Positions 34,419 through 49,176 of a stretch of DNA of 64,000 nucleotides are shown piece by piece (the stretch's first letter is position 1; the number at the start of each line of letters is the position of its first letter). The stretch is from positions 186,001 to 250,000 of the forward strand of contig JAHDVH010000003.1 of NCBI GenBank assembly GCA_023382385.1. The letters run 5' to 3'. This stretch comes from a bacterium. GTDB taxonomy: Bacteria > Electryoneota > RPQS01. The position numbers and the translations under genes are program-made. The notes under the pieces were generated by a model. That model searched no databases. It worked only from the letters and a program-made list of their open reading frames with translations, and was not told the DNA's origin.

Positions 34419-34685
34419 GCTGTTATCCTTAAATAATTGTTTTGCAATACTTAATCGTCGAAGCGGAGACCGTCTATAAACGTTTAAAATACGTATCGGT
34501 TAGGCCGAATGCAAGCACTTTGGCAGATTCCTTGCTGTGGAATATGCGGAGTTGGTTGTTGCTAAATTTCCTTCGCAGCATTCCGGCCTTGCATCTGCCT
34601 CGAATTGCTATTAACTTAAGCTTTCGCCATGTCTTGGCATTAGATGCAGATGCTATACTTTACGATGAAACCAATGGGTCCTGGG

Positions 34686-37607
34686 ATGAAAGCTTGTTTG
34701 GTCGGTTTTCGCGTCTTATTACTTACCCTCTTTGGGTTGCTTGTTTCCGTTCCGTCTACCGTCTGTAGTGCTGATGTGATTTGCCCGGATTGCGGCAAAG
34801 TCGTTGAGAACGATTCACCGTGGGAAGCGGTAACTGCATTAGAGAACAAAGACACTTGGAAGAGCGCTTTGGCGCCTAAAATGTACTGTTTCGATCCGGG
34901 TACACCTGAGGACGTTGTTCAGTCACTGGTGAATCGAATCTACAACAACCCTGCCTCCTACATCAGCAGCAGTCGTTGGACGGCAACAGCATCGGGCACG
35001 ACCGGAGCTCAAGGTGAGCCGACGGTCCTCACGTACAGCTTTGTGCCGGACGGAACTACCGTTCCTGATGATCCACCGCCGAATGGCTTTGGGAATCAGG
35101 TCAATAACATCCATGCCATGATGATTGCGAAATTCGGCAGCGTTGCCAACGGTAAGGCGAAGTTCAGACAGGCTTTCAATCAATGGCAGGCGCTAACAGG
35201 TTTAACCTATGTGGAAGAGACGAATGATGATGGCGCTGCTCTGTTTTCTTCACCCGGTGTGCTTGGCGTCAGGGGTGACATTCGACTCTCGGCAATCCCC
35301 ATGGATGGCTCGTCCGGAGTCCTTGCTTACAACTACTTTCCGAATACCGGAGACATGGTATTGGATAATGCCGAAAGCTGGCAGAATTCCAGCTCGGACT
35401 ATCGGTTCTTTCGCAATGTAGTCACCCATGAAGCGGGACACGGTATCGGTCTGTCCCATGTCTGCCCGGATGATTGTCAGTTTCTGATGGAGCCATACAT
35501 CTGCACGGCATACGATGGCCCGCAGCATGACGATATTCGTGGAGGTCAGCGGCAATACGGAGATACGACCGAAACCAATGACTCGCCCGCAACTGCGACT
35601 TCATTAGGCAGTCCCGCTAATGGCACAACGACGGTCACAAATCTGTCAATAGACGACAATGGCGATCAAGACTATTTTGCCTTCACTGTGCCGACGAACA
35701 AACAAATCACGGTAACCGTTACTCCTGTCGGAATGTTCTATGACCAGTGTGCGCAGACTCAGGCTTGCGCATGTGCGGCAGGGGACACAGTAAGGACCAC
35801 AGACGACGTGAATCTGTCCGTGCGGCTTATCGGCACAAACGGTTCCACGATTCTGGCGGAGGCAAGCAGTCAACCTGCCGGCGTGGCGGAGACCATTCCT
35901 AATACAGCCCTTCCGACTGCGGGAACGTACTACATTCGGGTCTACCAGGGCACGACGAATGCGATCCAGTTGTACAATCTCAGCTTCACCTTGTCCAATC
36001 TTGTGGTGCCGTCAATAACTGTGTCACAGCCAAATGGTGGCGAGTTTTGGAATGCGGGCACTAATCAGACGATTACGTGGACGTCCACAAGTGTGACAGG
36101 TAATGTGAATATCGAACTGAATCGGAATTTCCCGGGCGGAACGTGGGATATGCTGTTTGCGAATACGGCGAATGACGGAACGCAATTGTGGAACGTCGTT
36201 GGTGCAGGCGGAACTGAAGCCAACTGCAAGGTTCGCGTGACGAGCATCAACACCCCGAGTGCGACAGACGAATCCAACAATGTGTTCACGATCTTCTCGC
36301 CTTCCATTCAGGTTGTCCGGCCGAACGGCGGAGAAGTTCTAAACGGTTCTGCTCTTGAGCAGATAAATCTTATTCCGAGTGGAATCACAGGCAACGTCCT
36401 TGTGGAATTGAATCGTGGATATCCCGCCGGAACGTGGGAAAACATCGGTTCCATTCCGAACACAGGCGGCACTCTTGTGTTTGGCGGTCCGCCCACAACG
36501 ACCGCTCGAATTCGATTGACGTCAATTAATCAGCCGAGCGTGTCGGATATTTCCGATGCGAATTTCGAAATCTACGTTGTGAATCTTCCGCCAGTCATTA
36601 AACATGATCCGAAGGGGGATCAGTCACCTGGCAACTCGGTTGTCACTGCTGTAATCACGGATGATGCCGGTCCGATCACCGCAACGCTTTACTATCGTCC
36701 CTCAGGTGGCGGGGCATTTTCCTCCGTGAGCATGCCTTCAACCGGAAACCCGAATGAGTTCGCAGGACAATTTGTTGCGGTCGAAGGAAGCTACGACTAC
36801 TACCTGCAGGCGCTGGATGCTTCAGACTTCGCCGCGACCGATACCTTTAGTTTCGATGTCAAGGCCTGCGAAGACGTGATTGCCTTCGATGACGGAACTA
36901 CAGAAGGGTACAATTGGGCCTACGAAACGCCGTACTCGTGGGCTGTGAAATATGCGCCCGAAGCGTATCCGTTTTTACTGTGCGGATTTGAAGTGGCTGT
37001 TGCGAAGTTCCATCCAGACAGCAGCCATTCCCGAATCGGTGCCAGAGTTCTGCTTGCTGACGGAATCGGAGGCCTGCCCGGTACTGAGATTTGGAGTGAG
37101 ATTAGTGGCTCGGTCGGCAATGTGATCGGAGGTCTTCCCGCCGGTCAAGTTGCGTGGGCGCGAGTCTTAACTCCTGAAACACCGTTGATTATGAACCAAC
37201 CGTTCTTTGTGGCCGTCGATAATCCCCAAGGCGGCGCATACGAGGCCTTCGGTCGTGACGATAACACCAATAGTAGCAACAGCTATTTCTACGATGGCTG
37301 CGATTCGCTATGGTATAGCGAGAACGATCTGGTCCCCAACGCGCAAGGCGGACAGCGTATGATTCGATTGCTGGGGGCATCGGTTCCACCCCCAAGCGAA
37401 TTGGTCATTCTCTCAAGCGGAAATGACATCGTTCTCTTTTGGGCGAGTTCCGGTGCACCTTATTATCGAGTCTACAGTTCGACAACCACCGGAGGGCCTT
37501 TCACGACGCTTGAAGGTTCAACTTCCGATACGACCTTCACAGATCTTGGTGCCGTCATGTCGAATGATCTCAAGTTCTATGTGGTTGTAGCCTCTGCGAC
37601 TCCCTGA
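34686..37607 (+). CDS. Second matrixin-like metalloprotease (no T9SS domain), paralogue
   Basis: The product has a signal peptide, a Cys pair (VICPDCGKV), and a matrixin domain with HEAGHGIGLSH (HExxHxxGxxH) and LMEP. A PPC-like domain (about 315-450) follows, then two Kre9/KNH-like modules each opening 'QPNGGE / RPNGGE', a Big-like module, and a beta domain starting CEDVIAFDDGT. An FN3-like tail ends LKFYVVVASATP. The segments GSSGVLAYNYFPNTGDMVLD and YDGPQHDDI are nearly identical to the paralogue at 32283. The start is uncertain: ATG 34686 gives the most compact signal peptide, with 34665 and 34644 in frame, and none has a good ribosome site. No NYPNPFN domain is present. Confidence 0.88.
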   Translation: MKACLVGFRVLLLTLFGLLVSVPSTVCSADVICPDCGKVVENDSPWEAVTALENKDTWKSALAPKMYCFDPGTPEDVVQSLVNRIYNNPASYISSSRWTATASGTTGAQGEPTVLTYSFVPDGTTVPDDPPPNGFGNQVNNIHAMMIAKFGSVANGKAKFRQAFNQWQALTGLTYVEETNDDGAALFSSPGVLGVRGDIRLSAIPMDGSSGVLAYNYFPNTGDMVLDNAESWQNSSSDYRFFRNVVTHEAGHGIGLSHVCPDDCQFLMEPYICTAYDGPQHDDIRGGQRQYGDTTETNDSPATATSLGSPANGTTTVTNLSIDDNGDQDYFAFTVPTNKQITVTVTPVGMFYDQCAQTQACACAAGDTVRTTDDVNLSVRLIGTNGSTILAEASSQPAGVAETIPNTALPTAGTYYIRVYQGTTNAIQLYNLSFTLSNLVVPSITVSQPNGGEFWNAGTNQTITWTSTSVTGNVNIELNRNFPGGTWDMLFANTANDGTQLWNVVGAGGTEANCKVRVTSINTPSATDESNNVFTIFSPSIQVVRPNGGEVLNGSALEQINLIPSGITGNVLVELNRGYPAGTWENIGSIPNTGGTLVFGGPPTTTARIRLTSINQPSVSDISDANFEIYVVNLPPVIKHDPKGDQSPGNSVVTAVITDDAGPITATLYYRPSGGGAFSSVSMPSTGNPNEFAGQFVAVEGSYDYYLQALDASDFAATDTFSFDVKACEDVIAFDDGTTEGYNWAYETPYSWAVKYAPEAYPFLLCGFEVAVAKFHPDSSHSRIGARVLLADGIGGLPGTEIWSEISGSVGNVIGGLPAGQVAWARVLTPETPLIMNQPFFVAVDNPQGGAYEAFGRDDNTNSSNSYFYDGCDSLWYSENDLVPNAQGGQRMIRLLGASVPPPSELVILSSGNDIVLFWASSGAPYYRVYSSTTTGGPFTTLEGSTSDTTFTDLGAVMSNDLKFYVVVASATP

Positions 37608-37872: not shown

Positions 37873-39243
37873 ATGAACAATCCAAGAGTTTGCTGCGTCT
37901 TCTTCGCGCTGCTGCTTTTCCTCGCCTCGGCCGACGCGCAACCCATTCAAGTTGGGTTTGGATATTGCGCTGAAGCAGAGCCGATCGGTTGCGGCTGCAG
38001 TTTGCCGACACGAGTACCCATTGCAGATGGCGAGAACTCGTGGTGTATCTTCTGGGATCGCAATGGAAATGGTCCGGACGAGTTGGACGAATTGCTGGCA
38101 GAAGGAGTTGGCTATGGCCAGGCTAACTACAGTTGCAAGCCGTTTAATGGCGTGGAGTATTGCGGCTCTGAAGGCAGTTTCTTTGCCGATCAGTACTTGA
38201 TCATCGGGATTCCACCCGTGCCGCCCGATTCTTCAAGTTACTTCATCAAAGTGACAGGCGAGAGTTGCTGCTGGGTGTCCGATACCTTTGTCGTTGAAGT
38301 GGGTTTTCAGGAAATCTATCTCGCCGATGATGACTGGACTTGTGAAGACATCGCGTGTCCATTTGGTGAAGCACCTAATCCAGTACAGAGCATTTCCGCC
38401 ACGATGGATGCATACTGTCTGCAAGTTGATTTCACTTGGGAACACGATGGTCAAAACGTGACCGGCTTCAATCTATACACGAGAACTGATCCGGGTCAGC
38501 CTTGGCTCTTTCTCCGTCCGTTCTCTGGGACGGAGCGTTCTGGCGGAATCCCCGCATGCGTGGACGGACCGATTCAGATTGGATTACGGGCAGTGAACGG
38601 TGCACAGATGTCGGACATTGTCTTTACGACAGGGACGACGTACCTGCGTCATTTCCCGGATCAGGGCGCCGTTCAATGGGTCGGTGGAAACGACTACAGA
38701 CTTAACCTGGTGAGACCACCCGCAGGTGGCAGTTGTGCTGCGTTCTTGTGGTTCGACTTCTATTCCGGGGGGAGTTTCGTGGAGCGGGTTCTGTCGGTAA
38801 CCAACTTTGAGCGCGTATTAGAGATGACGTTCGACGTCACGCTTCCGACACCGCCCAACGCAGACTGCTACATTGTCATGCTTGACAGCTTCCCGGATCC
38901 TCTGAATCCCATGTACGGTTGCGGTTTGACGGATACAGCATTCTTTACAGTGGATGCAGGCGATGCGCCTAGTCTTGTCCGCGAGTTCAACTTGCATCAG
39001 AACTATCCCAACCCTTTCAATCCAGTCACTACTATCGCTTTCATTCTTCCATCAACCGGCTACGCGGAGCTTGCAGTATTCAATTTACAGGGTCAACGTG
39101 TCGCAACGCTTCTGTCGGGGGTCGCGACCGCTGGTGAGCACAGAGTCGAGTGGTCGGCGAGCGATATCGCTTCTGGAGTGTACATATACCGTCTGCAAAC
39201 GGATACCCACTTGTCGACTCGCAAAATGGTGTTGATGAAGTGA
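37873..39243 (+). CDS. Secreted protein with T9SS type A sorting domain
   Basis: The 456-residue protein has a signal peptide (MNNPRVCCVFFALLLFLASADAQ in pieces; cleavage near ADA-QP). A Cys-rich N-terminal region (CAEAEPIGCGCSLP, CVSDTFVVEV) suggests disulfide stabilisation in the periplasm or outside. Residues about 170-270 are FN3-like. The last 80 residues form the sorting domain: HQNYPNPFNPVTTIAF ... LAVFNLQGQRVATLL ... GVYIYRLQTD ... RKMVLMK. The ATG is preceded by GGGAGG, ten bases upstream. It lies downstream of the protease gene, behind a terminator. The binding partner or activity is not recognisable. Confidence 0.85.
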   Translation: MNNPRVCCVFFALLLFLASADAQPIQVGFGYCAEAEPIGCGCSLPTRVPIADGENSWCIFWDRNGNGPDELDELLAEGVGYGQANYSCKPFNGVEYCGSEGSFFADQYLIIGIPPVPPDSSSYFIKVTGESCCWVSDTFVVEVGFQEIYLADDDWTCEDIACPFGEAPNPVQSISATMDAYCLQVDFTWEHDGQNVTGFNLYTRTDPGQPWLFLRPFSGTERSGGIPACVDGPIQIGLRAVNGAQMSDIVFTTGTTYLRHFPDQGAVQWVGGNDYRLNLVRPPAGGSCAAFLWFDFYSGGSFVERVLSVTNFERVLEMTFDVTLPTPPNADCYIVMLDSFPDPLNPMYGCGLTDTAFFTVDAGDAPSLVREFNLHQNYPNPFNPVTTIAFILPSTGYAELAVFNLQGQRVATLLSGVATAGEHRVEWSASDIASGVYIYRLQTDTHLSTRKMVLMK

Positions 39244-39261
39244 CGGGAAGTCATTTCAACG

Positions 39262-39297
39262 AACAGCCCGGCGAATTCTCGTCGGGCTGTTTGTTTT
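39262..39297. terminator. Terminator between 37873 gene and the gamma-glutamyl operon
   Basis: The stem aacagcccg-cga / tcg-cgggctgtt is followed by TGTTTT on the plus strand. It lies between two convergent genes and may serve both. Confidence 0.8.
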
Positions 39298-39312: not shown

Positions 39313-40023
39313 CTAAGGCGATTTCACTCGCTTCAGAGTTCCTTGAACTCTAAACTCCGCATTGTACGGTGTGTAGTCCAAAACGATGTCGTAGGCCGGG
39401 CCTTCGTCAAAAGTAAGATACAACACTGTCGCTTCATCAGCAGCGGCATACTTTCCGCGTACGGGCGGCACGAAATTGCTTGTCCAGCGACACGTGCTGC
39501 TCACTCGGACATCGTCCAACCAGCCGTCAAAGCCGCGCGGCTTGTCATCATCCCCAATCCCGTTGCCTATCCAAACTGGCTTGCGCGTAACTGTGAGCGG
39601 CACATCAATCACGGTCGCGGAGAACAGATTGCCATCCACGAAGAACCGCAAGGACTTTCCATCATATGTCACAGCAACGTGCTGCCACTTCCAATATGTG
39701 ACTGCGCCCTTCTCAGAGAGCTGCCAGCCTGCGTCGCGACTCGGTCGAAAGCCAATGCGGGCATCGTCGGAAAGGTAGAATGTCAAACCACTCTTCTCCT
39801 GATCAAGGATTCGTCCTCGCCCTCCACCACCCTGAGTCCTCGGACGCACCCAAGCCTCAAAGGTGTACTCACGGGCGCCCTTGATCGACTGCAAACCATC
39901 GATGTGTTCAATCTTGCCTCCGGCGGTCTTGCCGTCCAGATCCAGACAGTAATTCCACGACCGTGGTTGCGAGAAGAGCAAGGCAGTCGACGAGATCAGG
40001 ATGAACAGAACCCGAAGAATCAC
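39313..40023 (-). CDS. LamG/concanavalin-A-like domain protein
   Basis: The 236-residue protein has a signal peptide (…STALLFSQ) and a single jelly-roll domain of LamG/laminin-G-3 type: YTFEAWVRPRT, WQHVAVTYDGKSLRFFVDG and GWLDDVRVSS are the diagnostic strands. Such domains bind glycans or proteins outside the cytoplasm. It is the last gene of the gamma-glutamyl operon, its ATG overlapping the DUF6305-like stop by four bases. It may bind the operon's polymer substrate or cell wall, but this is inference. Confidence 0.85.
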   Translation of the reverse strand: MILRVLFILISSTALLFSQPRSWNYCLDLDGKTAGGKIEHIDGLQSIKGAREYTFEAWVRPRTQGGGGRGRILDQEKSGLTFYLSDDARIGFRPSRDAGWQLSEKGAVTYWKWQHVAVTYDGKSLRFFVDGNLFSATVIDVPLTVTRKPVWIGNGIGDDDKPRGFDGWLDDVRVSSTCRWTSNFVPPVRGKYAAADEATVLYLTFDEGPAYDIVLDYTPYNAEFRVQGTLKRVKSP

Positions 40024-40571
40024 TCTTTCGCCTTCTCCTCAACTGAATACTTTGTTCTCAGCAACGGTCCCAAATCGGTAATCTTTTCAACCACCGAATA
40101 GTTGATTTTTCGCTCGTCGGCTATCGACTTAAAGAACCCGTCATCGTCTCCCCCGGACACTACAATCAGCTCGTTGGCAAGGCCCGCGCCCAAGCGATTG
40201 AACTCGTCAGAGAGAGCGCCTCGGCGGTTCTTTCCGCCGACATGGACTGCCAATACCGGTATGCCTTGCTTCGCGGCGCTTGACAGAAGTTCTGTAACAC
40301 GGGATGATTCTTGCTCGGAACTTACCTTGGCAGCGCCGAGTCCCTTACTTGAACCTCCCAGCACGACAATGACCGACTTGTTTCCTTCAAGATGGGTGGT
40401 ATTCGCCAGTGGCTCATATGTAAATGGAATATTCTCGCGAGTCAAGAGCGTCTTGAGCATCTGTGCGTCAGCGCTTTGTCCCGCAGAGGTCAACAACACA
40501 GGTGCCGCCAAGTCTGCGGCCAGCGCCCTGATTGTGAACAGCACAAGGGTGAGTATTGAACTTCGAAGCAT
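40020..40571 (-). CDS. DUF6305-like exported protein
   Basis: The 183-residue protein has a signal peptide (…FTIRALA). The mature start AAPVLLTSAGQSADAQMLKTLL is the conserved signature of the DUF6305 group, as I remember it. The following alternating strands and helices (VIVVLGGSSKGLGAA, GIPVLAVHVGG, NELIVVSGGDDDGFF) suggest a Rossmann-like periplasmic domain. ATG 40571 was chosen because GAGG stands six bases before it and the signal peptide begins there. It is 14 bases after the M14-like gene. The group tends to co-occur with TRAP-type permeases and M14-type hydrolases, consistent with this operon; the function is unknown. Confidence 0.7.
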   Translation of the reverse strand: MLRSSILTLVLFTIRALAADLAAPVLLTSAGQSADAQMLKTLLTRENIPFTYEPLANTTHLEGNKSVIVVLGGSSKGLGAAKVSSEQESSRVTELLSSAAKQGIPVLAVHVGGKNRRGALSDEFNRLGAGLANELIVVSGGDDDGFFKSIADERKINYSVVEKITDLGPLLRTKYSVEEKAKE

Positions 40572-40585
40572 AATGTCCTCTCTTC

Positions 40586-41713
40586 CTATTCTTTTCCGGC
40601 TGAGGAGAAATAGTGTCCCAAGCCGTTTTCTTGAATGTCTGAACAATCCGGAATGCCGACTGCAATAACAGCGCGATCGGGATGCAGTTCGTTGAAACTC
40701 TTGTTCAACATTTTGAATCCGGCGATGTGTCGGCCGACGCGCACGCCTAACGAAATTCCGTCGGGCCCATAAGGAACTCGCGTCAGATTAATCTCCGCTG
40801 CTTGAACGTACATCGGGTCTTTCCCCGTAAGTATCAAATTTGCGTCTGTCTTCCCGCGCAATCGACCTTGAATTGCATTGGCCGACTCCATGAGCGTCGC
40901 AAGGCATGGTGTATGATCACCAAGCTCCCGGTGCGAAAGGCCGCGAAAGTTGGCCGGAGATGGTTCAAGCGAGAAGTCCAGCCCTTCAAGCTGCAATTCG
41001 AGAACCGCGATCGAAGCGCAATCCATCGCCCTTTCGTGCGCCACGATCGCATTGACCACAGGATACTCAAGCGACGCCTCGTGCATGTCAATCACCAAAT
41101 CCACCCGCTCGCTGCGCACCAATTCTGCAATGGCATGTCCGATTCGCTGTGTGAAATTTCCGTCCGATCGACCCGGATAGCTACGATTGAGATTTCGACT
41201 GTCCATCCCCGAAAGCAGTTGTCCTGAGGGATAGTGCACAAATACTTCGGGATCAGGCCATTGATCAAGCGGATTTGTATAGCGGCTGCCCATTCTGAAA
41301 CTGCGTGACCCTGTAGGAGTCTCGATTGCAAATGTCGCCGGAAACGCTTCGCCTGGTGTCGTGTGCGTGAGCGCGGAGTGGTTGGCACGCGGAACAACCA
41401 GAATTCGCCCTTGCTCCATCGTCAGATTTTCTATCAGTAGATATGCGGCGAGGTAGCTTGCCGGTTCGTCGCAATGTGTTCCCCCCAAAACAAGTAGCGT
41501 CCCGCCACTAAGAGTGTCCCCAAACTCCATGACTTCGGTGTCTCCGCGCGTTCCCAGAAGCGGCGGATAGTAATCGGACAGTTTCTTGATGGCAGTAAGC
41601 GAGCGCGTTGGGAACAACGTTTCATCAGAATGCGCCTGCCGAAACTCGAATCCCGTCACGACACAGAGCGCAGTCGTGAGAATCAGTAGAACAAAAGCAC
41701 GGGCCAACTTCAT
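40586..41713 (-). CDS. Exported M14/AstE-AspA-type zinc hydrolase
   Basis: The 375-residue protein has a signal peptide or anchor (FVLLILTTALCVVTG). Zinc ligands of the M14 / succinylglutamate-desuccinylase fold are visible: GGTHCDEPA (His and Glu), RNLNRSYPG (substrate-carboxylate Arg and Asn) and VIDMHEA (third ligand His). It probably cleaves an amide or carboxy-terminal bond of a glutamyl compound in the periplasm. It overlaps the 49-residue membrane-protein gene by four bases. In this operon a gamma-glutamyl peptide or polymer is the inferred substrate. Confidence 0.82.
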   Translation of the reverse strand: MKLARAFVLLILTTALCVVTGFEFRQAHSDETLFPTRSLTAIKKLSDYYPPLLGTRGDTEVMEFGDTLSGGTLLVLGGTHCDEPASYLAAYLLIENLTMEQGRILVVPRANHSALTHTTPGEAFPATFAIETPTGSRSFRMGSRYTNPLDQWPDPEVFVHYPSGQLLSGMDSRNLNRSYPGRSDGNFTQRIGHAIAELVRSERVDLVIDMHEASLEYPVVNAIVAHERAMDCASIAVLELQLEGLDFSLEPSPANFRGLSHRELGDHTPCLATLMESANAIQGRLRGKTDANLILTGKDPMYVQAAEINLTRVPYGPDGISLGVRVGRHIAGFKMLNKSFNELHPDRAVIAVGIPDCSDIQENGLGHYFSSAGKE

Positions 41714-41859
41714 TTGAACAGGAACACGCGCATGATAATCGGAATCAGAACCACCGTTGCGGACAACTGACGCCGCCAGTCTGATTCTCGAAACAATTCA
41801 CGGAGAGTCAAGATTCCGACACTCAGTGCAATCAGCCAGTATATCCAAAAGAGGATCAT
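41710..41859 (-). CDS. 49-residue two-helix membrane protein between permease and hydrolase genes
   Basis: This small gene is coupled at both ends: its ATG overlaps the permease stop by one base and its stop overlaps the hydrolase ATG. The 49-residue product has two hydrophobic segments (about residues 2-20 and 33-47) separated by a charged loop RELFRESDWRRQ. The size and position recall the small accessory membrane proteins of permease systems: DctQ is usually about 160 residues with four helices, and PgsE of polyglutamate loci is also tiny. No homologue is asserted. The tight coupling argues that it is a real gene. Confidence 0.7.
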   Translation of the reverse strand: MILFWIYWLIALSVGILTLRELFRESDWRRQLSATVVLIPIIMRVFLFK

Positions 41860-43136
41860 CACGCCAGCCCAAACAATTTTGCAAAGTCGTTTGCGAAGTA
41901 GATCATCAGAAGCGTTACCGCGATTGAAAGAGCGATTGGCCAGACACAAAATTTCAGAATTCTGACAGTGCTGTTTTCGCCCACGACCGGTCCCGCAAGC
42001 AGAATAGCCAGGCGCGTCGGAGGCATGTAGTCGCCAACCGATGCAAGCATGGAAAGTGCCGCAGCGACGAGAATATTGCTGCGATCAAGCAATGACAGCA
42101 GAATCGGCACACCCAAAACGACGCTTGCACCGTATGCGGAAACTCCTCCAAACAACGGAACGAGTACGGCCATGCCAAGGTAAAGCTGCCAGTCAGGCAA
42201 GGACAGCAGGTTTATCACGATCCACCCGCGCGCGCCGCTTAAGGTCAGAACTTCAATAAATGCACCGATTCCTGCCAGAAGCGCAAGAATCGACAGAGAT
42301 TCGCGAGTAGCCCAGGTCGCACTATCCTTGATCGAGACTCGATCACCTGTGAAGAGCCCGACGACTGCGCTGAGAATGAATATCAAGGGTATCCCGACAT
42401 AGGGAACAACTCCCGGAACAAACTTCTCTCCCAGCATCAGACCTGCCAGAACCACAAGCGGCAGATAGAGCTTCAATCCGTATTCGCCGAAGCGAGATTG
42501 TGGAAGAAGTGTTAAGGCAGTCTGGGGATCAAAAGACTTGAAGTATCCGCCCATCAACAAAAATGCCGACAGCAGGGCAAGCGGGATAGTCGCAAGCAGC
42601 AGTGGCAGATCAAATCCAATGTACGGCATGTCCACGCCGCCACAAATCAGCATCGCGCAGATGTTCACGGGCGGTGCAACCATACCGAAGAAAGCGCCGG
42701 TCGCGATGAAAGCTCCGGCCACTGCAGGCGGTGCGCCCGTGCTCAAAAGCAACGGCGCAATCATCGCACCCGTCGTCAGAACGCAGGGTGCGGTTAGACC
42801 TGTGAACATACCGGGAAACATCACAAGCAACATCAGCAATGAGATCAGCAGAACCTTGTGGCGGCCGAAGTTCTGCACAACCCAGACGTTCAGTGTACCG
42901 AGAGCACCCGAACGCTCAAAGACTGCCATGAAGAACAGCGATGAGATTACAATGAGCATTGGATCCAAATAGAGCATGGATCCTTCAACCAGATATCTTA
43001 GTCCCAATCCATTGCCCGAAGCCAAGCTTCCACTTGCCGCCGACAACAAAAGAGCAACACCCGTAGGTATCCTCAACAGAAAGATCGCGCCGCATAGAGC
43101 GGCAATCATGACGCCAAGGACAGCTCCTTCGCTCAC
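41859..43136 (-). CDS. TRAP-type (DctM-like) permease, large subunit
   Basis: The 425-residue protein has about 12 hydrophobic segments and DctM/ion-transporter-superfamily features: LLRIPTGVALLLSA, helix-hairpin motifs FPGMFTGLTAPCVLTTGAM and the symmetrical LVPLFGGVSAYGASVVLGVP, and SVGDYMPPTRLA near the end. It starts with GTG overlapping the PgsW-like stop (GTGA). No DctP binding protein and no normal DctQ are in the operon, so it may work with the 49-residue protein. Its cargo is unknown; gamma-glutamyl breakdown products are the natural guess from its neighbours. Confidence 0.88.
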   Translation of the reverse strand: MSEGAVLGVMIAALCGAIFLLRIPTGVALLLSAASGSLASGNGLGLRYLVEGSMLYLDPMLIVISSLFFMAVFERSGALGTLNVWVVQNFGRHKVLLISLLMLLVMFPGMFTGLTAPCVLTTGAMIAPLLLSTGAPPAVAGAFIATGAFFGMVAPPVNICAMLICGGVDMPYIGFDLPLLLATIPLALLSAFLLMGGYFKSFDPQTALTLLPQSRFGEYGLKLYLPLVVLAGLMLGEKFVPGVVPYVGIPLIFILSAVVGLFTGDRVSIKDSATWATRESLSILALLAGIGAFIEVLTLSGARGWIVINLLSLPDWQLYLGMAVLVPLFGGVSAYGASVVLGVPILLSLLDRSNILVAAALSMLASVGDYMPPTRLAILLAGPVVGENSTVRILKFCVWPIALSIAVTLLMIYFANDFAKLFGLA

Positions 43137-44113
43137 CTCTTCTCCAAGAAGTACACCGGCGAAGTACCAAGTCTGGGCAATGGAGACGGATCCACCGGAA
43201 TTCCCGCATGCTGAGCAAGCTCTTCAACCTGCAGAAGATTCAAAACCGGCACTCCGGCAGCAAGGAAGTCAAACACCAATCCTCCAGTGGAGGTTGACAC
43301 GGAATTCTCCCAGTTCTTGCTATCAGGGCGAATGTAGCCCCCCGGAAGCTCCCGACCTTCAGGTCCTGTGCCGAGCATCAAATGGTTTCCGCCAACGTTG
43401 ATCAGGAGTGAGTAGCTTTGCGGATTCCCGACGGCAGCCTGCCGCTCTTCGTATTGCGCGCGACGGTTGCCCGCATCGAGTAGTCTGTATCCGAGTCGCG
43501 CGCACCTCTTTCTTAGAAAGTCAAGCGTTTCCGCGGTCAATCCGCCCCCAACATCGCCCGTCCCGCCCAGTGTCACAAGATCGCTGCGTTTGTTCAACAG
43601 GCCTTCTCTGACAAGCACGTCCTCCATATCAATCCAGGTCATATCGAGCTGATTGGCGCCATAACTTGACGCCCCGAGGCTTGCTATACGGAGCGACGGT
43701 ACGCCAAGAGTCTCAAGTGCGCAAATCAAGTTCAGATTTAGTCCCGGCAGAGAACCGGTCATCGTGACCAGGACTGAATCTTTCTTTGAAAGACCGTGCT
43801 CTTGCAGCAAACGAGTCAAATAGGCTGCAAAGTCAGGATTCGTAGCCGTACGTTTGGCCGCAAGATAGCCCGGTGTCGTAGTCAAAGGTGTAAACTCTTC
43901 ACCTACCAGACCAGTCCGATTGATGTCATTCTTCGAGTTGACTATTCCCAATCGATGTTTGGTCAGGTAGATCTCTCGAGAGGCGCGCTGCGCTTTCTGA
44001 GCAGCTTCGAGCATTAACTCGTACGAAGGGTGGCGCGATTGTGACTCTGCGTGAGCAACGGCACAAAGCAGCAGACAAATGAGGACCTTCTGGCCGCTAA
44101 TCAAGTGACGCAT
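43133..44113 (-). CDS. pgsW: PgsW-like poly-gamma-glutamate system protein
   Basis: The 326-residue protein has a signal peptide (LLLCAVAHAES). The conserved stretch INRTGLVGEEFTPLTTTPG and the following LAAKRTATNPDFA match the 'poly-gamma-glutamate system protein' family as I recall it. Later motifs are VTMTGSLPGLNL, LGASSYGANQ and TLGGTGDVGGGL. ATG 44113 was chosen over GTG 44119, because GAGGG is five to six bases upstream. By family association it works on poly-gamma-glutamate outside the cytoplasm, but its biochemistry is not known to me. It begins eight bases after the ggt stop. Confidence 0.75.
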   Translation of the reverse strand: MRHLISGQKVLICLLLCAVAHAESQSRHPSYELMLEAAQKAQRASREIYLTKHRLGIVNSKNDINRTGLVGEEFTPLTTTPGYLAAKRTATNPDFAAYLTRLLQEHGLSKKDSVLVTMTGSLPGLNLNLICALETLGVPSLRIASLGASSYGANQLDMTWIDMEDVLVREGLLNKRSDLVTLGGTGDVGGGLTAETLDFLRKRCARLGYRLLDAGNRRAQYEERQAAVGNPQSYSLLINVGGNHLMLGTGPEGRELPGGYIRPDSKNWENSVSTSTGGLVFDFLAAGVPVLNLLQVEELAQHAGIPVDPSPLPRLGTSPVYFLEKR

Positions 44114-44121
44114 TCGCACCC

Positions 44122-45876
44122 TCAGTAGCCGTCTGCCGCACCGTCACGACGAGGGTCAGAACTCCCTACCATTCGTACCTGCGAGTTCTTGGGAAAGTGA
44201 ATGGCCTGCACTCCTCCGAAGTAGTTGCTGATCGGTGCATCCGGGTATAGCTTCCACCCTTTCAGTGCAAGGGCATCCAGCGTGGATTGAGGTAATCGAG
44301 GCTCATAGACTAACGTCATTCCGGCCGGAAAGAAGCGCGGCAGGTCGAGAGCTTCGTTCAGCGGTAGATCGAATTCGAGTACAGCGAGTATAACCTGCAC
44401 AAGTGCCGCAGGAATCCGCGCTCCGCCCGGGGTGCCGATCACCATCACGGGTTCGCCATCTCTTAGGATGATGGTTGGCGCCATGCTGGATACCGGGCGA
44501 TGGTGCGGCGAAATCGAATTTGCACCGGTCGTATCTCGATCGAAGTCCGCCATATGATTATTGAGCAACAATCCTAATTCGGGAACCATGACGCCAGAAC
44601 CGAAGAAATAGTTGATGGACTGGGTAAGCGATAACAAGTTTCCGTCTTTGTCGGCCACCACAAGGTGAGTCGTATTGCCTGGGCCAAATGCGCGGACGGA
44701 ATCCAACGGAAGTAGTTTAGACACCACCGTATCCATCGGCAGTGAATCCCGGACCTCCGAAAGGTAGGTCGGAGACAACAGAGTGTCTACAGGAATGCGT
44801 GAAAACCCCGGGTCACCAAGCCAAGCAGCTGCGTCGGTGCGTGCTTTCCGAATCGCTGTGGCCACCGTATGAATATAATCCGGTGTCAATAAACCCTTTC
44901 CTTGAATGTCATACGGTTCAAGCAGCTTCAGTGTTTCCAGCAGAATTAATCCTCCTCCTGCTGGCGGGGATGTCGTTACTATCTCATAGTCGCGATATCT
45001 AACGCGAAGCGGTTTCCGTTCTACTGGTGCATATCGATTTAGATCGGACTCAGACACAAACCCACCATGGGACTTGACGGCACTTGATACTTGAGCGGAT
45101 ACAGGAGGAAAGTAGAAACTCTCAAGGCGTGTATGTGACAGGAACTTGAGCAATGCGCTTAACTTCGGTTGAGTCACGCGAAATCCTGCAGGCGGCGGCA
45201 AGCCCTCATCAAGAAAGACACGTGCAAGATTTGAGTCTGAGGAAAGCGTCTCGAGATTGTCAAGAATGATGGAGCTTTGTTTCTCCGAAACCAAGTAACC
45301 AGAATCGGCGACTGCTACTGCGTCCGCAAACAGCTCAGCCAGAGTCTTCGTGCCGAACCGGCGATGCAAGGTTTGCCATCCAGCAGGTGCACCCGGAACA
45401 AGAACGGACGTCCCACCTGTGCGTTGCGCCAATCGCAACGTGTCAAGCGGATTGAAATAGACCGACCTGCTCATTCTTGCCGGCGCAGTCTCTCGATAAT
45501 CCAAGAGGAAAGTTGAGTCGGCTGCCGCGTCATAGTATAAAGCGAAACCGCCGCCACCTAACCCACTTGCATGAGGCTCGGTAACATTGAGCATTGCCAA
45601 CGCAGCCAGCGCGGCATCTACGGCATTTCCACCGGACTCCAGCACACGCTTACCAGCGGCAGCAGCAAGCGGATGTGCACAGACCACCATTCCATTGTTA
45701 AACGCTGATAAATCTGCGCGGACGAAATTCGTATCCAGCGGCGCAGGCAAAGGCTCGACAACTGCCGGGGGCTTTGTCGAGGCGCAACCTAAGACGAGCA
45801 GGACGCAAGTGGCACCAAGCAGCTGGAAAATTATTCTTTTCCAAGCATTTGTGGGGATAAAATGGAGACATGACAT
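44122..45876 (-). CDS. ggt: Gamma-glutamyltransferase (lipoprotein)
   Basis: The 584-residue precursor has a lipoprotein signal (LLVLGC-AST). GGT cleaves gamma-glutamyl bonds, transferring the group to water or amino acids. Conserved parts: ESGGNAVDAALAALAMLNVTEPHASGLGGGGFALYY (in pieces), the autocatalytic Thr in GNTTHLVVADKDGN where the precursor splits into two subunits, and the glycine loop GTPGGARIPAALVQ. The substrate Arg lies in YRETAPA. The ATG is preceded by AAGG. First gene of the operon; facing away from marR across a 220-base gap. Membrane anchoring through lipid suggests action at the cell surface or periplasm. Confidence 0.92.
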   Translation of the reverse strand: MSCLHFIPTNAWKRIIFQLLGATCVLLVLGCASTKPPAVVEPLPAPLDTNFVRADLSAFNNGMVVCAHPLAAAAGKRVLESGGNAVDAALAALAMLNVTEPHASGLGGGGFALYYDAAADSTFLLDYRETAPARMSRSVYFNPLDTLRLAQRTGGTSVLVPGAPAGWQTLHRRFGTKTLAELFADAVAVADSGYLVSEKQSSIILDNLETLSSDSNLARVFLDEGLPPPAGFRVTQPKLSALLKFLSHTRLESFYFPPVSAQVSSAVKSHGGFVSESDLNRYAPVERKPLRVRYRDYEIVTTSPPAGGGLILLETLKLLEPYDIQGKGLLTPDYIHTVATAIRKARTDAAAWLGDPGFSRIPVDTLLSPTYLSEVRDSLPMDTVVSKLLPLDSVRAFGPGNTTHLVVADKDGNLLSLTQSINYFFGSGVMVPELGLLLNNHMADFDRDTTGANSISPHHRPVSSMAPTIILRDGEPVMVIGTPGGARIPAALVQVILAVLEFDLPLNEALDLPRFFPAGMTLVYEPRLPQSTLDALALKGWKLYPDAPISNYFGGVQAIHFPKNSQVRMVGSSDPRRDGAADGY

Positions 45877-46095: not shown

Positions 46096-46587
46096 TTGAA
46101 TTATAATCCGGATGAAATTTTCCCCTTCTGGGTCAACAGGACGGCTTTCATTTTTCGGGCACTTTTTGAACAAAGAGCCGAGCCGTTCGGCCTGAAGTGG
46201 CTCGAGGGAGTAATTCTCCTCAAGCTCGGCATGGGTCATGATACCCTTGCCGATCTGGCCCGAAATCTCGACCAGTCCCACCCTGCTATCCTCCGTCATC
46301 TCGACAAACTCGAGGAATTGGGCTTAGTTGAACGAACCAACCATCCTGAGGACAGACGAGTCAAGATTCTCGTGTTGACCAAAGCAGGGAAGTCCCGTGT
46401 TGCGGAGCTACAGGACATGACCAGCAGACTCTCGAATGAGTTCCGCGCGAGATTTGGCAGCGATCGGATCGCTCAGGCCATCACACTAATGAAAGAGGTG
46501 GTAGCGGCATACGCTGAAGACGGTCTTCAGAGTTGCCCAATTGACGAAGAACATCATGACTCAGATAAGCAGGCAGGACATGCGTAA
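46096..46587 (+). CDS. MarR-family transcriptional regulator
   Basis: The 163-residue winged-helix protein has the MarR pattern: helix-turn-helix LADLARNLDQSHPAILRHLDKLEELGLVER and the wing NHPEDRRVKILVLTKAGK (in pieces: DRRVKILVLTKAG). It starts at TTG 46096 with GAGGG about seven bases upstream. Its last codons overlap the outer-membrane factor gene that follows, so it is co-transcribed with the RND pump it probably represses, relieved by pump substrates. Confidence 0.9.
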   Translation: MNYNPDEIFPFWVNRTAFIFRALFEQRAEPFGLKWLEGVILLKLGMGHDTLADLARNLDQSHPAILRHLDKLEELGLVERTNHPEDRRVKILVLTKAGKSRVAELQDMTSRLSNEFRARFGSDRIAQAITLMKEVVAAYAEDGLQSCPIDEEHHDSDKQAGHA

Positions 46588-48007
46588 CTTCTACTTACTC
46601 TCGCTTGGCATGGCGCTTCTGGCTGGAGGGTGCGGATATGTTCAAAGGCATAATGCACCACAAATCGCTGACTTACCTTCAAACTATCACACCAGCTCGG
46701 AACTGAGCGAGTTTCGCGATGAAGCATGGTGGGTCGAGTTTGGAGATGAGACTCTAAATCAGCTCATGAATGAAGCAATTTCAAATAGTCCGAGTCTCGA
46801 GGCAGCCTTGGCGCGACTGCAACAGTTCCGTGCCCAGAGCAGAGCGACGCGGGCGAGCCTCTTCCCAACTCTGACCGCTTCCGGATCCTATCAAGACGGC
46901 GAGCGCGCATTCGGAGGTTTTGGGAAAATCGAGCTGGGATACTACGACGTTAACATAACAGCTCAATATGAGATTGACTTATGGGGAAAGCTGTCGGCTC
47001 GGCGGAGGGCCGCATTTGGCGATTTATTGGCTTCGGAAAACGACGCGCGTGCGGCCTTGCTGACATTGACGTCACAGATTGCGCGGACGTATTTTCAAAT
47101 TCTTGATCTTCGCGAGCAGCAGCGACTGATTGACCAGACCATCGCTGCAAATCAGAGCGCTTTTGATCTTGTGAAGAGTCGCTATGCATTGGGCATCGTC
47201 ACGTCCCTCGATGTCTATCAATCGGAGTCCAGCCTGGCACAATCACGCGCACAGAGATCAACTATAGAGGCTTCGCTGGCCGCGATGGAGCATTTGCTGT
47301 CCGTCTTGCTCGGGCGCTACCCTGAAGCCGGAATTGCAGGTAATATGATTTCTCTCCCGCCGGCGGTCGTAGACATCGGGACGGGATTGCCTTCTGACTT
47401 GCTTGAGCGCAGACCCGATATACGATCTGCACGGGCACGGCTGCTCGCTTCGGATGCGCGTTGGGCATCTGCAAATGCCGCCCTCCTCCCGAGTTTTACG
47501 CTTACCGGATCTTATGGGAACATTAACAAGAACCTGGAAGACGCGCTTGACCCCGAGAACTTGCTTTGGAATCTTGTTGCGGGCTTAACGGCACCGATTT
47601 TTCAGGGCGGTCGATTGGTAGGAGAAGCGCAGCGATCTGAAGCTGTTTTCTATGAAACTGCTGCAAACTACAAAGCGGTCGTGCTGAATGCTTTTAGGGA
47701 GGTTGAAGACGCGCTGGTCCGGGGTGAAAAACAGAAGGAACGCATTCTCGAGCTGGAAAGGCAAACTGCCGCTGCCGGTAACTCACTCCGAGTCGCGGAA
47801 GATCAGTATCGGCAAGGCGTCATTAACTACCTGCAAGTGCTGATTGCACAAAACTCTTACTATCAAGCTCAAAGTGCCCTAATCAGCGCGCGGCGAGAAC
47901 TTATTCAGAATCGAATTGACTTAGCGTCCGCGCTCGGCGGCTCGTGGACGGACGAAATACTGGGGAACCGTGAGCCGTCGCCGAAACTGCATACGGAGGT
48001 TCGTTGA
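46580..48007 (+). CDS. Outer-membrane factor lipoprotein (NodT/TolC-like)
   Basis: The 475-residue protein has a lipoprotein signal (LLAGGC-GY) and the OMF double repeat: ALARLQQFRAQSRATRASLFPTL for the first helical hairpin and WASANAALLPSFTLTGSYGN for the matching second repeat. LLERRPDIRSARARL is the NodT-family signature. It should form the outer-membrane exit duct of the pump. ATG 46580 was chosen because AGGAC lies just upstream and it begins the signal peptide; it overlaps the marR stop (ATGCGTAA). Confidence 0.92.
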   Translation: MRNFYLLSLGMALLAGGCGYVQRHNAPQIADLPSNYHTSSELSEFRDEAWWVEFGDETLNQLMNEAISNSPSLEAALARLQQFRAQSRATRASLFPTLTASGSYQDGERAFGGFGKIELGYYDVNITAQYEIDLWGKLSARRRAAFGDLLASENDARAALLTLTSQIARTYFQILDLREQQRLIDQTIAANQSAFDLVKSRYALGIVTSLDVYQSESSLAQSRAQRSTIEASLAAMEHLLSVLLGRYPEAGIAGNMISLPPAVVDIGTGLPSDLLERRPDIRSARARLLASDARWASANAALLPSFTLTGSYGNINKNLEDALDPENLLWNLVAGLTAPIFQGGRLVGEAQRSEAVFYETAANYKAVVLNAFREVEDALVRGEKQKERILELERQTAAAGNSLRVAEDQYRQGVINYLQVLIAQNSYYQAQSALISARRELIQNRIDLASALGGSWTDEILGNREPSPKLHTEVR

Positions 48008-48009
48008 AC

Positions 48010-49172
48010 ATGACTGCCGAGAAAAAGAAGTTCAAAATACTTTTGCCTGTCTTAATCATCGTGGGTGGCTTCCTCCTCATGATGGGACTGATTGCGAGCC
48101 GCAAGAAGCCGGAGTCGAGCATTCCGAGCTTTGCCGGCGTGCTGGTTGAAGTGCAATCAGTATCGAAAGAATCCCACCGCGCAACGGTCAGCGGTAGTGG
48201 AACCGTGCGAGCTAAGCAAGAAGTCTCTCTATCTCCTCAAGTAGGAGGGAAGGTGGAATGGGTAAGTGAGCAGTGCGCCGCCGGCGGCGAGTTTCGCAAG
48301 GGCGATATCCTATTCCGGATTGAGTCGATTGACTACGAGCTTGCGGTTGAGCAAGCTCGGGCACGAGTCGCGCAATCGGAATATCAGCTTGCAGTCGAAC
48401 AGGCACAGGCGGACGTCGCCAAGCGGGAGTGGAATCGAATGGAGGAAAGCAAAGCCGCTGTCGCCGACACACCAACTTCACTCGTCCTGCGCGAACCCCA
48501 ACTAAAGCAAGCGGAGTCCAATCTTGCGTCTGCAAAGGCCGCTCTCGAGCAAGCCGAACTCGCGCTCGAGAGGACAAGAGTTCGTGCTCCTTTTTCAGGA
48601 CGAATACGTCGTGAATCCGTTGATGTGGGCCAGATGGTCTCGCCGGGTATGCCGGTGGGCAGTCTGTACTCGACTGATGTCGTGGAAATTGAGGTCGGAT
48701 TGCCTGTTGAAGAACAGAGGTGGCTTGAGATTCCGGGTTCACCTGCGACAGTGACATTGAAAGTTGATAGAAACGACTTCACCTGGAGTGGCAAAGTTGT
48801 GCGTTGGGTCGGTGCGCTGGACAGCGTGGGGCGACTTGCACGTGTGATAGTGGACGTTGCAGCACCTTATGCAGAAAGAGAAGACGGCGGGCCGGTCCTT
48901 GCGGTCGGCAGTTTTGTGAACGTGGATATCCTTGGAAGAGAGATGCCCGATGTTGTACAACTTCCGCGTTCAGCCGTTCACAGCAACGACATCGTCTGGA
49001 TCGCAAGGCCGGATAACACTCTCGAGTTGAGGCCCACCACGTGCATTCTAAGAACCCGCAACTTTGTCTATCTCAGCCAAGGGCTTGATGCGGGCGAACG
49101 TGTTATACTGACCAGTATTTCCGGCGCAGCGGACGGTATGAAGCTACGCATTGCAAACGGAGGCTCGAACGG

Positions 49173-49176
<4 letters not shown>
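48010..49176 (+). CDS. RND periplasmic adaptor (membrane fusion) protein
   Basis: The 388-residue protein has an N-terminal membrane anchor (LLPVLIIVGGFLLMMGLIA), the lipoyl half-motif GSGTVRAKQEVSLSPQVGGKVEWV, a coiled-coil hairpin (about residues 95-180, AVEQAQADVAKREWNRMEE) and the returning lipoyl RVRAPFSGRIRRESVDVGQMV. A beta-barrel and membrane-proximal domain follow. GGAGG nine bases upstream supports ATG 48010. It overlaps the pump gene by four bases and links the inner-membrane pump to the NodT-like duct. Confidence 0.93.

What the first reader, a model, noticed from the sequence alone, without database searches (positions are those of the whole stretch)
39313..45876. Seven-gene, tightly overlapped gamma-glutamyl operon without polyglutamate synthetase genes
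Gamma-glutamyltransferase, PgsW-like protein, DctM-like permease, 49-residue membrane protein, M14-type hydrolase, DUF6305-like protein and LamG-like protein overlap or sit within 14 bases of each other. Nearly all have export signals. The ATP-dependent ligase (CapB/PgsB) and CapC are absent from the window. A coherent reading is a pathway that trims external poly-gamma-glutamate or gamma-glutamyl peptides and imports the products, rather than a capsule-making locus.
Basis: partly seen in the sequence, partly recalled or inferred. Interest (0 to 1): 0.8.

Follow-up and report, generated by a model that had tools for sequence, protein, structure and literature searches.

The report
Polyglutamate processing and uptake gene module
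This operon looks like the trimming-and-transport half of a poly-gamma-glutamate system whose polymer-making half sits elsewhere in the same genome, and in many unrelated bacteria the two halves sit together in one gene cluster that I found no paper describing.

Summary
The seven-gene operon is real and tightly packed. The inference drawn from the missing ligase is not right: the same genome carries a synthase operon (PgsB, PgsC, a second PgsW, two exported unknowns) on another contig, and 38 of 39 sampled genomes of the phylum (Calditrichota/KSB1) have PgsB. In Bacillota, Fusobacteriota, Spirochaetota, Acidobacteriota and other phyla the same GGT, DUF6305, DctM-like permease, 48-residue membrane protein and AstE/AspA-like hydrolase often sit directly beside pgsB-pgsC-pgsW. 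The window locus is therefore best read as the accessory (processing and transport) module of a poly-gamma-glutamate (PGA) system, physically split from its synthase in this lineage. The operon GGT lacks the lid loop, like the PGA-degrading Bacillus enzymes; the genome's other GGT has it. The permease has no DctP or DctQ; a conserved 47-49-residue two-helix protein follows it, and DUF6305 is exported (a lipoprotein in monoderms). Activity, substrate and transport direction are inferred, not shown. DUF6305 also has a second context in Clostridia without PGA genes. New variant of a known kind of system; interest moderate.

The parts
44122..45876 (-). gamma-glutamyltransferase, lipoprotein (VLGC lipobox), lidless type, nucleophile Thr402
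   Evidence: PF01019 438.8 bits, TIGR00066 414.9 over cut-off; aligns without a lid insertion to B. licheniformis GGT (4y23), while E. coli GGT has a 10-residue insertion there; Thr-to-PxSSM distance 62 residues, against 72 in the genome's other GGT
43133..44119 (-). PgsW2: PgsW-like protein with signal peptide and no C-terminal membrane helix (soluble paralogue)
   Evidence: TIGR04332 284 bits, cut-off 100; the alignment shows the C-terminal hydrophobic segment of most relatives is missing; AF2 pLDDT 94, pTM 0.93
41859..43136 (-). DctM-like (TRAP large subunit-like) permease without DctP or DctQ
   Evidence: PF06808 35.8 bits, cut-off 23.8; no relative among solved structures by sequence
41713..41859 (-). 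49-aa two-helix membrane protein, conserved across phyla; no Pfam or NCBIfam family
   Evidence: no hit; relatives found in 59 of 79 loci, in 51 as the run DctM-small protein-AstE; invariant Y7, P40, R44
40586..41713 (-). AstE/AspA-like zinc hydrolase with N-terminal membrane or signal segment; HxxE at 80-83, DMHE at 209
   Evidence: PF24827 39.6 bits; nearest solved structures are aspartoacylase/DoeB-type enzymes; motifs kept in 61 of 66 relatives
40020..40571 (-). DUF6305 protein, exported
   Evidence: PF19823 158 bits; AF2 pLDDT 95, pTM 0.90, Rossmann-like alpha/beta domain; only copy in the genome
39313..40023 (-). LamG/ConA-like lectin domain protein; lineage-specific addition
   Evidence: PF13385 76 bits; beside DUF6305 only in close relatives (L078 = L096, and L079)
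39258..39295 (.). 17-pair hairpin between convergent genes, likely terminator

Best explanation
The operon is the extracytoplasmic processing-and-transport module of a poly-gamma-glutamate system. Polymer is made by PgsB-PgsC, with PgsW in place of the classical PgsA, from a separate operon in this genome. In the periplasm or at the cell surface the membrane-anchored AstE/AspA-like zinc hydrolase and the lidless lipoprotein GGT shorten the polymer (or gamma-glutamyl peptides) to glutamate or short oligomers. The DctM-like permease, with the 49-residue membrane protein in the place of DctQ, takes the products back in. DUF6305 acts as the exported ligand-binding partner, and in other bacteria also serves a dedicated sensor kinase. 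Shown here: gene content, conservation, linkage to the synthase genes, lidless GGT, zinc motifs, export signals. Inferred: activities, substrate, direction of transport, the roles of DUF6305, the small protein and PgsW2.
For: A synthase operon is in the same genome. In 35 of 79 DUF6305 loci pgsB-pgsC lie within 10 kb of the same accessory genes; DctM in 64, AstE 74, GGT 68, small protein 59. Of 39 genomes holding DUF6305 loci, 33 have PgsB (E about 2e-30 or better), including 23 of the 29 whose own locus showed none. In a spirochaete sample PgsB is in 12 of 247 genomes and strong DUF6305 in 3, all three with PgsB. The GGT is lidless, as are the 71 cassette GGTs that could be measured (of 72), while the genome's other GGT has the lid; lidless GGTs have an open site suited to polymeric PGA (PMC8062742). 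Hydrolase motifs are kept in 61 of 66. DUF6305 is a lipoprotein in monoderm Bacillota and has a plain signal peptide in nearly all diderms, as expected of a binding protein.
Against: No activity data. Direction of transport is unknown. The DUF6305 model is a single Rossmann-like domain, not a two-lobed binding protein. Fifteen of 18 Clostridia with DUF6305 carry it in a different context with no PgsB, so DUF6305 alone is not a PGA marker. Six of 39 genomes tested have the module but no detectable PgsB, perhaps because several are incomplete. In one family of the phylum PgsW2 and AstE-DUF6305 lie apart from each other and no DctM was seen beside them.
Confidence: 0.55

Rival explanations
1. Stand-alone scavenging pathway: the operon trims foreign PGA or gamma-glutamyl peptides from the surroundings and imports glutamate, independent of any polymer made by the cell.
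For: No synthase in the operon; exported hydrolases plus permease; six genomes with the module and no detected PgsB.
Against: A synthase operon is in the genome; strong linkage to pgsBC elsewhere.
Confidence: 0.2
2. Export or anchoring module: the GGT acts like CapD (a GGT-family enzyme that attaches PGA to the wall), the hydrolase trims chains, and the DctM-like protein with the small protein helps export or maturation; no uptake.
For: Direct operon linkage to the synthase in other phyla; CapD is among the GGT's solved relatives.
Against: The GGT is far closer to hydrolytic Bacillus GGTs (302 bits) than to CapD (112 bits); the known transporters of the DctM family are importers (general knowledge).
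Confidence: 0.17
3. Glutathione or gamma-glutamyl amino-acid salvage with no PGA involvement.
For: GGTs of many Gram-negative bacteria act on glutathione (PMC8062742).
Against: The genome's other GGT has the lid loop and better fits that role; the module is linked to PgsB, PgsC and PgsW.
Confidence: 0.08

Closest known systems
PgsBCA/CapBCA poly-gamma-glutamate capsule operons with PgdS, GGT or CapD (Bacillus)
   Same: PgsB ligase and PgsC in the genome; a GGT-family enzyme and a hydrolase that act on PGA are part of the system in Bacillus
   Different: PgsW is present and no PgsA/CapA was seen in the synthase operon; GGT is joined by DUF6305, a DctM-like permease, a 48-aa protein and an AstE/AspA-like hydrolase; split into two loci here
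NCBIfam TIGR04332 'poly-gamma-glutamate system protein' (PgsW)
   Same: both genomic copies are members over the cut-off
   Different: the window copy is a soluble paralogue outside the synthase operon
TRAP transporters (DctPQM)
   Same: the large subunit is DctM-like
   Different: no DctP and no DctQ in the cassette; a two-helix 49-aa protein and DUF6305 in their places
AstE/AspA/DoeB deacylases
   Same: zinc motif and catalytic-domain profile
   Different: exported or membrane-anchored; substrate unknown

Membership tests
Classical PgsBCA/CapBCA PGA operon | PgsB ligase and PgsC present | tested here: met
   met for the genome (TIGR04012 403 bits, TIGR04011 122 bits on contig C1), not for the window
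Classical PgsBCA/CapBCA PGA operon | PgsA/CapA in the operon | tested here: not met
   the C1 operon runs PgsB-PgsC-PgsW-304aa-365aa; the last two have no Pfam or NCBIfam hit over cut-off; the rest of the genome was not searched for PgsA
Gamma-glutamyltransferase (T03) | full-length family match and nucleophilic Thr | tested here: met
   438.8 bits over the full profile; small-chain start aligns to Thr402
Lidless PGA-degrading GGT | no lid loop | tested here: met
   62 against 72 residues, gapless with Bacillus GGT
Lidless PGA-degrading GGT | hydrolysis of PGA | not testable with these tools
   needs enzyme assay
TRAP transporter | DctM large permease | tested here: met
   PF06808 over cut-off
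TRAP transporter | DctQ small permease and DctP binding protein | tested here: not met
   no family match to either in the operon; DUF6305 model shows no two-lobed fold
PgsW (TIGR04332) | score over curated cut-off | tested here: met
   284 bits, cut-off 100
AstE/AspA deacylase | zinc ligand motif HxxE plus later His, and profile match | tested here: met
   H80xxE83, DMHE at 209, PF24827 39.6 bits
AstE/AspA deacylase | known acyl-amino-acid substrate | not testable with these tools
   needs assay

The most novel reading that the evidence does not exclude
A so far undescribed kind of secondary transporter (DctM-like permease, 48-residue micropeptide and the exported Rossmann-like DUF6305 protein) that, with a lidless GGT and an AspA-like hydrolase, closes a make-trim-reimport cycle for poly-gamma-glutamate in many phyla, including oral treponemes and fusobacteria.
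Probability: 0.35. Interest if true: 0.68.

Novelty: new variant of a known kind. Interest (0 to 1): 0.52.

Why it matters
PGA is known mainly as a Bacillus polymer. The data suggest a widespread PGA system built on PgsBCW rather than PgsBCA that carries its own turnover and transport genes, and that the Calditrichota/KSB1 phylum almost universally encodes PGA synthesis. It gives a testable role to three uncharacterised parts (DUF6305, PgsW and a 48-aa membrane protein), and cultured carriers such as Treponema vincentii, Clostridium tetanomorphum and Fusobacterium species make it testable.

Tried and rejected
DUF6305 in viral contigs: none. The idea that DUF6305 always marks PGA: rejected, because 15 of 18 Clostridia genomes carry a second, PGA-free context; in the one locus annotated it is SBP_bac_5, DUF6305, histidine kinase, response regulator, DUF3798, ABC transporter. 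Fold search of the PgsW2 model: nothing with E <= 0.001. DUF6305 fold search: only generic alpha/beta matches, best TM 0.54 by query length. Origin of PgsW2 (duplication in the phylum or acquisition with a complete cassette): unresolved, since the tree separates it from PgsW1 but the AU test does not reject a single clade, p 0.39. The DUF6305-DctM fusion in L127 lacks the first permease helix and may be a deletion, so it is not used as proof. Promoter-like sites are no more frequent than in shuffled sequence. Literature searches for PgsW, DUF6305 and combinations with TRAP or desuccinylase terms found no description of the cassette; subscription papers are mostly not in the library.

Full report
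OBSERVATION. Families are firm for GGT, PgsW (TIGR04332), DUF6305 and LamG and adequate for the DctM-like permease; the hydrolase is AstE/AspA-like. A strong hairpin follows the last gene. The upstream MarR-like gene is divergent and heads what reads as an efflux operon.

THE SYNTHASE IS IN THE GENOME. A CapC search of the window's own genome gave one strong match on contig C1. Reading that region shows the operon PgsB (TIGR04012, 403 bits, cut-off 223), PgsC (TIGR04011, 122 bits, cut-off 96), a second PgsW (246 bits), and two exported unknowns of 304 and 365 aa. This five-gene operon was found in all 17 phylum loci read for it, counting the own one. PgsB is in 38 of 39 genomes of the phylum and in all 27 good-quality ones; PgsW is in 39 of 39, usually in two copies where DUF6305 is present. 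Titles of public records of these relatives name the group as Calditrichota/KSB1.

CONSERVATION. Within the own family the order GGT-PgsW2-DctM-small protein-AstE-DUF6305 is kept where contigs allow; LamG occurs only in close relatives. In another family of the phylum AstE-DUF6305 is kept but PgsW2 lies elsewhere. A collection scan with a DUF6305 alignment gave 79 named loci from 11 named phyla. Around DUF6305: AstE in 74, GGT in 68, DctM in 64, the small protein in 59, PgsB and PgsC in 35. The run DctM-small protein-AstE occurs in 51 loci. Complete clusters are seen for example in Clostridium pascui (L129), Treponema vincentii (L134) and Fusobacterium gastrosuis (L114). Of 39 carrier genomes searched whole, 33 have PgsB, among them 23 of 29 whose own locus showed none. 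As base rate, PgsB is in 12 of 247 spirochaetes, and the 3 with strong DUF6305 all have it; leaving out the centre genome, which was chosen for carrying both, chance is about 0.002.

AN IMPORTANT LIMIT. In 391 Clostridia, DUF6305 is in 18 genomes but clear PgsB in only 3, and a full rescoring of the DUF6305 carriers confirmed the absence. Three of the 18 have the PGA-type cassette; one of these (L175) is cut off by a contig end right inside AstE. The other 15 carry DUF6305 without any other cassette gene. In the one annotated in detail it sits between a peptide-binding lipoprotein (SBP_bac_5) and a histidine kinase plus response regulator, followed by DUF3798 and an ABC transporter. Kinases and regulators of the same kind, alike over most of their length, also flank PGA-type cassettes in Bacillota and Fusobacteriota. 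DUF6305 is thus best seen as an exported partner of transport and sensing, not as PGA-specific.

PARTS AND MECHANISM. The window GGT aligns without gap to B. licheniformis GGT where E. coli GGT has the lid loop; 71 of 72 cassette GGTs fall in the lidless range of lengths (one did not match the pattern), whereas the other GGT of this genome has the lid. A review describes lidless GGTs as having an open site suited to polymeric PGA, tested by lid insertion into B. subtilis GGT (PMC8062742). The hydrolase keeps its zinc motifs. DUF6305 has a lipobox in monoderm Bacillota and plain signal peptides in nearly all diderms, as binding proteins do; its model is confident but is a single Rossmann-like domain. 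The small protein is mostly 47-49 residues, with invariant Y7, P40, R44 and a C-terminal LRxLxIK-like end, and no family in Pfam or NCBIfam. PgsW2 has lost the C-terminal membrane segment that most relatives keep; its model has no clear match among solved structures. The most likely mechanism is make, trim and re-import of PGA, with synthesis encoded at the other locus. Trimming is supported by sequence features; import, and the roles of DUF6305, the small protein and PgsW2, are inference.

NOVELTY. Parts are known families; Fusobacterium nucleatum is reported to make PGA (PMC3815933, citing Candela 2009). No paper found in the held library describes PgsW as a PGA protein, DUF6305 or this cassette. 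I file it as a new variant of a known kind.

Noticed in passing
L002:6346-8354 (contig C1 of the own genome): Two exported proteins of unknown family (304 aa, and 365 aa that looks like an outer-membrane beta-barrel by eye) follow pgsBCW in all 17 phylum loci read; candidates for moving or holding PGA at the outer membrane.
   Followed up: partly
window 41713-41859 and its relatives in L096-L174: A 47-49-residue two-helix membrane protein conserved across phyla, after the DctM-like permease, with no Pfam or NCBIfam family.
   Followed up: yes
L131:380-2236, L142:5499-7262, L164:4230-5996: Lachnospiraceae DUF6305 lipoproteins with three tandem DUF6305 domains joined by Ala/Pro/Gly-rich linkers.
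   Followed up: no
L176-L191: Second DUF6305 context in Clostridia without PGA genes: in L183 a peptide-binding lipoprotein, DUF6305, histidine kinase, response regulator, DUF3798 and ABC transporter; homologous kinases in most of the others.
   Followed up: partly
L127:1693-3429: Treponema sp. ORF fusing DUF6305 to a DctM-like permease that lacks its first helix; may be a deletion artefact.
   Followed up: partly
window 34644-37607: Secreted matrixin-type metalloprotease with a PPC domain, followed by a protein with a Por secretion tail at 37873-39243.
   Followed up: no
window 46096-49176: MarR-like regulator followed by what reads as an outer-membrane efflux factor and a membrane-fusion protein, divergent from the GGT operon.
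   Followed up: no
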